From the NCBI GenBank assembly GCA_021372785.1, contig JAJFTT010000006.1:1-57729 (forward strand): 57,729 bases of DNA, written 5' to 3'. The DNA is from Negativicutes bacterium (lineage in GTDB: Bacteria > Bacillota > JAAYKD01). Shown here piece after piece: positions 35,785 through 38,556 of the stretch. The stretch's first letter is position 1, and each line of letters starts with the position of its first letter. Made by a program: the position numbers and the translations under genes. The notes under the pieces were generated by a model that was not told where the DNA came from, did not search any database, and was given only the letters and a program-made list of their open reading frames with translations.

Positions 35785-36414
35785 ATGGAAATGCCGGATA
35801 CCTATACGCTGCAGGGGACAGTCAAAGATAAAACTGGAAATCCGATCGCAGAAGCGGAAGTCCGCTTGCTCGATCGTCATTTTGAAACCCTTTATAGCGG
35901 TCTGACCGATGCAAACGGAAATTACGCACTGCCGGTGCAAGCAGGCGTTTACCCTTTCTTTTTTGCCTGTAAGGATTATGCGCTCAACAATCTGGAATTC
36001 TGGTGTCAGGACTTGCCGCTCTGGACGGATCTGAGCCTGGATGCTGTCATCGACAAATTGGAAGTCTATGGCCTGCATTGTTTTTCAATTCGTGGAGCAA
36101 GTCCCGCTCTCACCCTTTATTTTCGTCCAATGAGCTTAGAAAAAGTTCTGGCCAAGGAAAATAACCTTTGCCCGGATCTGGAAGCAGCGCAGATCAAGGC
36201 CTGGGTGAATGGGGTTGCCTGCCCTTTGCTGCACTGTAATCGAGTAAGCGAGTATATCAAAGCGGATCAAGCGGCGATGGATGCCTTTTTGATCCAAATC
36301 GCCCGGCCGGATGGTGTTGCCCTGCTGCCCGATGCAACTTACTACCTCCTGCTGGAAATCAACGACTGTCATTCGGGAGCGGTTGGTCAGGCAGGCGTCT
36401 ACTTTACTTATTAA
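35785..36414 (+). CDS. Carboxypeptidase regulatory-like (CarboxypepD_reg) domain protein
   Basis: 209 residues; an ATG 6 nt further in is an alternative start. The first 60 residues form the transthyretin-like fold: YTLQGTVKDKTGNPIAEAEVRLLD, GLTDANGNYALPVQAGVYPFFF. The remaining 150 residues are not recognised; they include LTLYFRPMSLEKVLA and a beta-rich end DATYYLLLEINDCHSGAVG. There is no signal peptide, so it is probably cytoplasmic, unlike many members. It is monocistronic, followed by a terminator-like hairpin and the palindrome repeat field. Function unknown. Confidence 0.75.
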   Translation: MEMPDTYTLQGTVKDKTGNPIAEAEVRLLDRHFETLYSGLTDANGNYALPVQAGVYPFFFACKDYALNNLEFWCQDLPLWTDLSLDAVIDKLEVYGLHCFSIRGASPALTLYFRPMSLEKVLAKENNLCPDLEAAQIKAWVNGVACPLLHCNRVSEYIKADQAAMDAFLIQIARPDGVALLPDATYYLLLEINDCHSGAVGQAGVYFTY

Positions 36415-36434
36415 GCAGCGGGAAGCAATTTGAA

Positions 36435-36712
36435 AAAAATAGCTGACGAAGGTGATGGATGGAAGGGTCGGGGTCCTCCAGACACCATCTTTTTTCAACG
36501 AAGATGCAATTACAAACGATGCGGAGTATCTGTAGGGAACGGTCTTGACCGTTCCGAACATCACAATCCACAACGAATATTTAGTTACAACCAATGCGGA
36601 GTATCTGTAGGGAATGGTCTTGACCATTCCGAACGTAGCAGTTTACAACGAATATTCAATTACACAAGACACAAATACGGAGAACGCGGAGCGGTCAAGA
36701 CCGCTCCCTACA
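36435..36712. repeat. Repeat block A
   Basis: This block recurs as block B (36832-37036) at about 90% identity by eye. It carries one extra 74-bp unit (about 36536-36609). Both contain a terminator-like hairpin, two kinds of palindrome and the linker ATTCAATTACACAAGAC. No coding capacity is credible. Confidence 0.8.
36451..36495 (+). terminator. Imperfect terminator-like hairpin in block A
   Basis: GGTGATGGATGGA opposes TCCAGACACCATC with several mismatches, followed by TTTTTT. It lies 37 bp after the preceding gene. Confidence 0.45.
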
Positions 36713-36831
36713 GGGAGTGCTGCGTCTCCAAATACAACTTACGAGCCATATGATACGAACGTAGCTGGAAATACAGAGAGTGCTGCGCCTCCAAATACAA
36801 CTTGCGAACCATATGATATGAGCAAGATTAT

Positions 36832-37036
36832 AAAAATAGCTGACGAAGGTGGTGTATGGAAGGGTCAGAGTCCTCCAGACACCACCTTTTTTCAACGAAG
36901 ATGCAATTACAAACGATGCGGAGTATCTGTAGGGAATGGTCTTGACCATTCCGAACGTCACAGTTTACAACGGATATTCAATTACACAAGACACAAATAC
37001 GGAGAACGCGGAGCGGTCAAGACCGCTCCCTACATT
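36832..37036. repeat. Repeat block B
   Basis: Second copy of block A, displaced by about 397 bp and lacking the extra 74-bp unit. The last palindrome unit (37045-37110) extends the array further. The whole stretch 36415-37188 holds no gene. Confidence 0.8.
36848..36892 (+). terminator. Well-paired terminator-like hairpin in block B
   Basis: GGTGGTGTATGGA opposes TCCAGACACCACC with a single mismatch and TTTTTT follows. It has no gene directly upstream, so it is probably carried by the repeat. Confidence 0.5.
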
Positions 37037-37188
37037 TCGGCAATGTACTATCGGCAACGCTGACGGAGATTGCGGAGCGGTCAAGACCGCTCCCTACAGA
37101 GAGTGCTGCGTCTCCAAATACAACTTACGAGCCATATAATACGAGCGGGGTTAGAAAAACAACAATCGGAATGATCTAAATTGCTCTT

Positions 37189-38418
37189 CTACTCTGCTAA
37201 ATCCACCTGTCTTGTATAACGTGCAATCGCCGCTACATCTTTATCCCCTCTGCCCGAAAGATTGACAATGATGCAGTCCTCTTTCGGCAAAGTGCCGGCA
37301 AATTGCAGGGCAAACGCCACCGCATGCGCGCTTTCAATGGCCGGGATGATCCCCTCACTGCGGGAAAGCACCTCAAAGGCATGCACCGCCTGGTCATCGG
37401 TCACCGCTGTGTATTCCGCTCTGCCGCTGTCCCGCAGAAACGCATGCTCCGGCCCAACGCCTGGGTAATCCAAGCCGGCAGAGATGGAATAGACCGGAGC
37501 CAATTCGTTTGCCTCTGTCTGGTTGAAATAGGATTTCATGCCATGGAAGGTTCCCACCCGACCCAAGGTCAGTGTCGCGGCGTGATCCGGTGTATCCAGG
37601 CCTCTGCCGGCGGCTTCACAGCCGATCAGGCGAACTTGCTTTTCGCAAGCGAATTCATGGAACAAGCCAATGGCATTGCTGCCGCCGCCCACACAGGCGA
37701 TCACGGCTGCCGGCAGTTTCCCTTCCGCTGCCAGAATCTGCTCTTTGGCTTCCCGGCCGATGATGCTCTGAAACTCACGCACCATTTCTGGAAATGGATG
37801 CGGCCCCACGGCCGAGCCCAGCAAATAATGGGTATCTTCATGACGCTGCATCCAGGACATCAATGCCGCATCCACAGCGTCTTTTAAGGTGCGCGTGCCG
37901 CTGGTGACGGCGTGCACCGTCGCGCCCAGTAATTCCATGCGGTAGACATTTAACGCCTGCCGCTTGGTATCTTCCTCACCCATATAAATATCGCAGCTGA
38001 AGCCCATTAAAGCCGCTACCGTGGCTGTGGCAACACCATGTTGACCGGCGCCGGTTTCGGCAATTAGATGGGTCTTGCCCATGCGTTTGGCTAATAAAGC
38101 TTGTCCCAGCGCATTGTTGATTTTATGGGCGCCGGTATGATTCAAATCTTCGCGTTTTAAATAGATTTTAGCGCCGCCCAATTCGCGGCTGAGATTTTCC
38201 GCATAATAAAGCAGAGAAGGACGTCCCGTGTAAGTCTTGCAGAGATGTAAAAATTCTGCTTGAAACTCCGGATCATGCCGGAATTTTTGCCATGCCAAAT
38301 CCACTTCCTCTACGGTCGGCTGTAATTCCGGCGGGATAAACTGCCCGCCAAATTGACCGAAAAAGCCTGCGGAGAGAGAATTTTGACCAGACTGGAGATT
38401 TTCCTTGGTTTCATTCAT
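37189..38418 (-). CDS. trpB: Tryptophan synthase beta chain
   Basis: 409 residues from the ATG at 38418 (AGGG 8 nt upstream). The PLP lysine is Lys99 in [13 protein letters not shown]. The active-site loop [10 protein letters not shown], the phosphate loop [10 protein letters not shown], and [13 protein letters not shown] are all present, so it is a TrpB1-type subunit that should work with TrpA to join indole and serine. No trpA or other trp gene is adjacent, so the partner is elsewhere or indole is salvaged. Expression is controlled by a T-box leader with a Trp specifier located just upstream. Confidence 0.96.
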
Positions 38419-38556
38419 GGTAATCACCCTATTTCATTGATGGCATGAAACGTTCCTTTCTATTATTCTTATTTTTTTCTGATTAGCAGCAGATTCGATG
38501 CCGAATTAAAAGCAAGCGCTTACTTTTTTCCCTGCAAACCGTCTCTTCGGGTACAC

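What the first reader, a model, noticed from the sequence alone, without database searches (positions are those of the whole stretch)
36435..37110. Palindrome array with compensatory mutations
Six 20-bp palindromes share the core GGTC-TT/AA-GACC, but their arms vary in step (AAC/GTT, AAT/ATT, AGC/GCT). Paired changes mean that the hairpin itself is maintained. The palindromes are embedded in larger duplicated blocks with fixed flanks (CTGTAGG/CCTACA). Such dispersed elements may be REP-like units moved by a transposase encoded elsewhere, or binding or processing sites.
Basis: seen in the sequence. Interest (0 to 1): 0.65.

Follow-up and report, generated by a model that had tools for sequence, protein, structure and literature searches.

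The report
REP hairpin array served by transposase
The six palindromes are copies of a short mobile-DNA hairpin (a REP element) found about 75 times in this genome, including around its single-copy partner transposase gene on another contig: a well-described kind of bacterial repeat, so the finding is real but largely ordinary.

Summary
Six perfect 20-bp palindromes (GGAxxGGTC-TT-GACCxxTCC) lie at window 36532-37097, each directly preceded by GTAG; shuffled sequence gives none. The arms vary in step (AAC/GTT once, AAT/ATT twice, AGC/GCT three times). About 75 units lie in about 17 mostly intergenic clusters on 14 contigs of this 2.1-Mb genome. Flanks are unrelated between clusters, so the conserved unit is only AAA(t/g)-GTAG-hairpin-GC; the larger duplicated blocks are a local tandem duplication. 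The genome encodes one REP-associated tyrosine transposase (RAYT/TnpA-REP) inside a cluster of these same REPs (C18:4489-4965 -), with intact HuH and Tyr motifs; a profile of its family matches E. coli TnpA-REP (PDB 4er8, E = 4e-9). In 22 of 31 loci with RAYT relatives, GTAG-tagged hairpins of other sequence lie by or in the gene (71 seen, 0 expected). This is a REP/BIME array of a REPtron resembling Quentin subclass 2.4: a new member of a known kind.

The parts
36532..36555 (+). REP unit, AAC/GTT arms (GTAG|GGAACGGTC.TT.GACCGTTCC), the genome's commonest type
36607..36630 (+). REP unit, AAT/ATT arms; forms a head-to-head dimer with 36688-36711
   Evidence: the pair folds as one long hairpin, (z -4.2)
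36688..36711 (-). REP unit, AGC/GCT arms (GTAG at 36711)
36929..36952 (+). REP unit, AAT/ATT arms; head-to-head dimer with 37010-37033
37010..37033 (-). REP unit, AGC/GCT arms
37074..37097 (-). REP unit, AGC/GCT arms
36424..36820 (.). first copy of the local array block (about 397 bp), repeated in part at 36821-37161; the block carries a terminator-like hairpin plus REPs
   Evidence: D1, D2
36821..37161 (.). second, partial copy of the array block
35785..36414 (+). left neighbour: 209-aa protein with CarboxypepD_reg domain; its 3' end faces the array
37189..38427 (-). right neighbour: PALP-fold enzyme, probably tryptophan synthase beta (TrpB; the name is from general knowledge), convergent with the left gene, so the array lies between two 3' ends

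Best explanation
The palindromes are REP elements of the GTAG superfamily, arranged as a BIME-like cluster of head-to-head dimers and tandem units in a convergent intergenic region. They are the non-autonomous substrates of the genome's own REP-associated tyrosine transposase (RAYT/TnpA-REP, resembling subclass 2.4) encoded on contig C18 inside a cluster of the same REPs. Proposed working: when the REP strand is single-stranded (for example during lagging-strand synthesis), GTAG plus the hairpin is recognised by the HuH-Tyr enzyme, which cuts next to it and joins the strand elsewhere, seeding new copies. Local arrays then grow and shrink by tandem duplication or recombination. Shown here: the GTAG-hairpin anatomy, the copy number, the RAYT gene among cognate REPs with its catalytic motifs, and the recurrence of the GTAG-hairpin/RAYT linkage in relatives. 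Inferred: binding, cutting, transposition and present activity.
For: Six perfect copies with 0 expected. 73 genome pattern hits against 0 in the control, about 75 units by covariance model. No copies in 60 relatives, including same family and order. Conserved unit limited to AAA(t/g)GTAG-hairpin-GC with unrelated flanks between clusters, which points to independent insertions. A Y1_Tnp gene (Pfam above cut-off; best NCBIfam model REP_Tyr_transpos, 68.4 bits, E 5.8e-19) lies among seven REPs on C18. H-x-H, W and the Y of YIxxNP are invariant among the 15 aligned relatives. Profile hit to PDB 4er8 TnpA-REP, E 4.2e-9, with both catalytic motifs aligned. 71 GTAG-hairpins in 31 loci of RAYT relatives against 0 in shuffles. 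The REP type at G297's RAYT locus is dispersed in G297 (16 hits), absent from the own genome and found once in one other of the 11 genomes searched. Compensatory arm changes within the family. Clusters are intergenic, mostly between convergent or same-strand genes.
Against: The RAYT scores below NCBIfam's curated cut-off for REP_Tyr_transpos (68.4 vs 80). About 75 copies in about 17 clusters is modest and strongly array-dominated, so tandem duplication explains much of the copy number. No empty-site comparison was possible: the nearest relative (same family, other genus) is not syntenic here. Nine of 31 relative loci show no GTAG-hairpin under the strict search.
Confidence: 0.92

Rival explanations
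1. The hairpins are mainly functional RNA or DNA sites (mRNA 3'-end stabilisers, terminators, or binding sites for a host protein such as gyrase or IHF), kept for that role rather than spread by a transposase.
For: The array lies between convergent 3' ends, and REPs elsewhere have been given such roles (PMC3733652, PMC8266576). Arms keep complementarity.
Against: The REP hairpin is not followed by a T-run and no terminator-like site was found by the scan; the terminator-like hairpin of the left gene is a separate feature. The oriented GTAG tag and the RAYT among cognate copies are not predicted by this model. Clusters of up to 10-11 in one gap are hard to explain by a regulatory role. Secondary use by the host is not excluded.
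Confidence: 0.04
2. A passive local repeat family amplified only by recombination and replication slippage; the nearby RAYT is a coincidence.
For: Tandem duplication in the window and a regular 72-bp array on C64.
Against: Copies sit on 14 contigs with unrelated flanks; the RAYT has seven of them within about 1 kb, and relatives repeat the arrangement with other hairpin sequences.
Confidence: 0.02
3. The second RAYT-like gene on C36 (248 aa) or the IS200/IS605-type Y1 gene on C48, not the C18 gene, serves the REPs.
For: One degenerate REP lies about 210 bp from the C36 gene (C36:146510).
Against: No intact REP lies near either gene (one search finds none in L036 or L047). The C36 protein has a long C-terminal tail and a shorter HuH-Y distance (58), unlike the C18 group.
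Confidence: 0.02

Closest known systems
TnpA-REP/RAYT subclass 2.4 (Quentin et al. 2018, PMC6006769; Bertels group 4) and its REPs
   Same: Short protein ending soon after the catalytic Tyr motif, without C-terminal tail; flanked by canonical GTAG hairpins; homologues carry in-frame REPs between HuH and Tyr motifs, the stated unique feature of 2.4; a 'double foot' REP exists (C25:440-467).
   Different: The own RAYT has no internal REP; its REP has two, not three, G-C pairs at the foot of the stem (GGA..TCC); HuH-Y distance 69 against a stated median of 88 for 2.4.
GTAG-tagged REP families (Di Nocera et al. 2013, PMC3733652)
   Same: GTAG tag, 20-40 bp palindrome, dimers mostly 20-100 bp apart, clusters with segments of flanking DNA, location between convergent or same-strand genes, REPtrons.
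   Different: [quoted passage not shown] neither Firmicutes nor Clostridia is mentioned in its main text.
E. coli TnpA-REP and BIMEs (PDB 4er8; REPtron Ec, PMC8266576)
   Same: HuH-Tyr catalytic core, GTAG tag, BIME arrangement.
   Different: E. coli REPs have a bulge in the stem and the enzyme has a C-terminal tail; here the palindrome is perfect and the protein short.
REPINs (Bertels and Rainey 2011, PMC3116915)
   Same: Inverted REP pairs that can fold as one hairpin (36600-36720).
   Different: Singlets and tandem units predominate; no uniform dimer is copied around the genome. The paper itself was seen only as an abstract.

Membership tests
GTAG-superfamily REP | GTAG (GT[AG]G) tetranucleotide at the foot of a 20-40 bp palindrome | tested here: met
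   All six window copies and nearly all genome copies
GTAG-superfamily REP | Repeated in the genome, dispersed, extragenic | tested here: met
   About 75 units on 14 contigs, intergenic; moderate number, clustered
GTAG-superfamily REP | Stem complementarity kept despite sequence change | tested here: met
   Three stem positions with both-side changes in the own genome; 7 of 9 across families (but its rows were chosen as palindromes)
BIME (REP cluster) | REPs in alternating orientation with linkers, often reiterated | tested here: met
   Order + + - + - - in the window, with a duplicated block
RAYT / TnpA-REP | HuH plus single catalytic Tyr (Y1) transposase core | tested here: met
   NHVH and YIDENP in the C18 ORF, Pfam Y1_Tnp above cut-off, profile aligned to 4er8
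RAYT / TnpA-REP | Passes NCBIfam's curated cut-off for REP_Tyr_transpos (80 bits); a naming threshold rather than a biological feature | tested here: not met
   68.4 bits, E 5.8e-19; the IS200 model reaches only 18.4 bits
RAYT / TnpA-REP | Gene flanked on both sides by cognate REPs | tested here: met
   REPs at L035 5086, 5183, 5325 (upstream) and 4400, 4301, 4022, 3825 (downstream), in both orientations downstream
RAYT / TnpA-REP | Cuts and rejoins the single-stranded cognate REP | not testable with these tools
   needs purified protein
TnpA-REP subclass 2.4 | REPs inserted in frame between HuH and Tyr motifs of the transposase gene | tested here: inconclusive
   Present in homologues L051, L052, L054, L055, L056, absent from the own gene; no subclass tree was built
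TnpA-REP subclass 2.4 | Foot of the canonical REP stem made of three G-C pairs | tested here: not met
   Own foot is G-C, G-C, A-T; relatives such as L050 have three. So it is filed as a RAYT/REP system resembling 2.4, not as a proven member of 2.4.
IS200/IS605 insertion sequence | Transposase carried by a multi-copy element | tested here: not met
   One copy of the C18 gene with many gene-free REPs

The most novel reading that the evidence does not exclude
The RAYT has shifted its REP preference within this lineage, and the AAC, AAT and AGC stem types are successive REP generations preserved side by side, so that this genome records transposase-substrate co-evolution in progress.
Probability: 0.1. 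Interest if true: 0.4.

Novelty: new member of a known kind. Interest (0 to 1): 0.22.

Why it matters
It confirms a true REP/BIME array together with its likely transposase, and adds a REPtron resembling the less studied subclass 2.4, with a perfectly palindromic, TT-looped REP and one cognate gene. That makes a simple pair for biochemistry: the assays in PMC8266576 covered only group 2 and group 3 enzymes. It does not change the general picture of REPs.

Tried and rejected
my first pattern had wrong spacing and missed the array; disregard it. Empty-site test: trpB of the nearest relative G001 was found, but the neighbouring gene is not syntenic and the flank holds what look like tRNA genes and no REP, so no insertion point could be read. 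Rfam: no relevant match. Intrinsic terminator: the REP hairpin lacks a T-run. Overlapping ORFs across the array (36136-36627 -, 36430-36753 +, 36614-37063 +) have no Pfam match and are taken as spurious.

Full report
OBSERVATION. The window holds six perfect palindromes of 20 bp, each preceded by GTAG, at 36532-36555 +, 36607-36630 +, 36688-36711 -, 36929-36952 +, 37010-37033 - and 37074-37097 -. The general form is GTAG|GGAxxGGTC.TT.GACCxxTCC. One copy has AAC/GTT arms, two have AAT/ATT and three have AGC/GCT. Shuffled versions of the window never contain such a site. Folded as single strands the three copies tested form 8-bp stems with a CTTG loop. The array lies in the gap between two convergent genes: a 209-aa CarboxypepD_reg protein (35785-36414 +) and a PALP enzyme, probably TrpB (37189-38427 -). 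A block of about 340-400 bp is duplicated within the gap.

GENOME-WIDE. The window is contig C6 of a 2.1-Mb, 74-contig genome. The REP pattern occurs 73 times with up to two mismatches (a few of these are reverse readings of the same palindrome) and never in the reversed control. A covariance model built from the variants gives about 75 units on 14 contigs. The list made from the held stretches has 50 units of the AAC type, 10 AAT, 3 AGC, 1 ACAGTC/GACTGT and a dozen degenerate, tag or loop variants. AAT is found on five contigs; AGC only in the window. Aligning the copies on the hairpin shows that conservation fades about four bases upstream (AAA t/g) and two downstream (GC); farther flanks are unrelated between clusters. 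The clusters are intergenic, mostly between convergent or same-strand genes (simple ORF calls). Neighbouring units are head-to-tail 32 times, head-to-head 13 times (10 of them 50-66 bp apart) and tail-to-tail 10 times. Several contigs end within arrays, so the true number is probably higher (inference). No copy was found in 60 relatives, including one genome of the same family and two of the same order.

TRANSPOSASE. Y1_Tnp searches find four loci in the genome. One of them, C18:4489-4965 - (158 aa from MDLPN; the longest frame with a start has 194 aa), lies among REPs of this family: three upstream and four downstream within about 1 kb. It has the HuH motif (NHVH), the conserved W and the YIxxNP motif with the catalytic Tyr. 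It passes the Pfam cut-off for Y1_Tnp. Its best NCBIfam model is REP_Tyr_transpos, but at 68.4 bits it is below the curated cut-off of 80. A profile of 15 relatives hits one solved structure only, E. coli TnpA-REP 4er8, at E 4.2e-9, with both catalytic motifs aligned. The gene is single copy.

RELATIVES. Homologues (34-46% identical over the set aligned) were fetched from a Clostridia MAG, Bacteroidota and related groups, a deltaproteobacterium, a Patescibacterium and 19 further genomes of the window's phylum. In 22 of 31 such loci, hairpins directly preceded by GTAG lie by or in the gene: 71 in all, none in shuffled sequence. The stem sequence differs from genome to genome. One tested REP type (from G297) is dispersed in G297 and missing from the window's genome. 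In L051, L052, L054, L055 and L056 a REP lies in frame between the HuH and Tyr motifs. Quentin et al. 2018 (PMC6006769) describe this as the unique feature of TnpA-REP subclass 2.4, so it is known. The window genome's enzyme lacks such an insert.

MECHANISM. For an E. coli enzyme and two group 3 enzymes it is established in vitro (PMC8266576) that TnpA-REP recognises the folded single strand, that GTAG and hairpin features matter to different degrees, and that the enzyme cuts at a nearby dinucleotide and transfers strands. By homology the C18 enzyme does the same with this REP. That step is inferred. Copy growth inside the window's array is better explained by ordinary tandem duplication.

ON THE COVARIATION ARGUMENT. 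Both-side changes occur at three of nine stem positions within the genome and at seven of nine across families, although the rows were picked as palindromes. Correction of imperfect palindromes by template switching could produce the same pattern without selection.

VERDICT. The finding is real and the REP/RAYT interpretation is supported. It is a new member of a known kind; I saw no property that lies outside published REP biology.

Noticed in passing
window 36443-36495 and 36846-36893 (+): Terminator-like hairpin followed by TTTTTT downstream of the 209-aa gene, duplicated together with the REP array; the second copy folds far better than shuffles (z -4.4), the first does not stand out (z -1.1).
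   Followed up: partly
L051, L052, L054, L055, L056 (RAYT genes of relatives): In-frame REP palindrome inside the RAYT coding sequence between HuH and Tyr motifs, encoding peptides such as VGAGSEPAPT; known for subclass 2.4 (PMC6006769).
   Followed up: yes
G000 C25:440-467 (L038): A 'double foot' REP (GTAG...CTAC), as if formed by central deletion of a head-to-head dimer.
   Followed up: no
G000 C36:146510-146534 and 146744-147490 (L036): A degenerate REP about 210 bp from a second RAYT-like gene (248 aa) of another group that has no intact REPs around it.
   Followed up: partly
G000 C64:4791-5616 (L042): Tandem array of REPs with a 72-bp period, nine to ten copies with one inverted copy.
   Followed up: no
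G000 C48 (L031:1393-2992): IS605-like pair: Y1 transposase-type ORF followed by a TnpB-like ORF (zinc-finger motif CSACG..CPVCG), without REPs.
   Followed up: no
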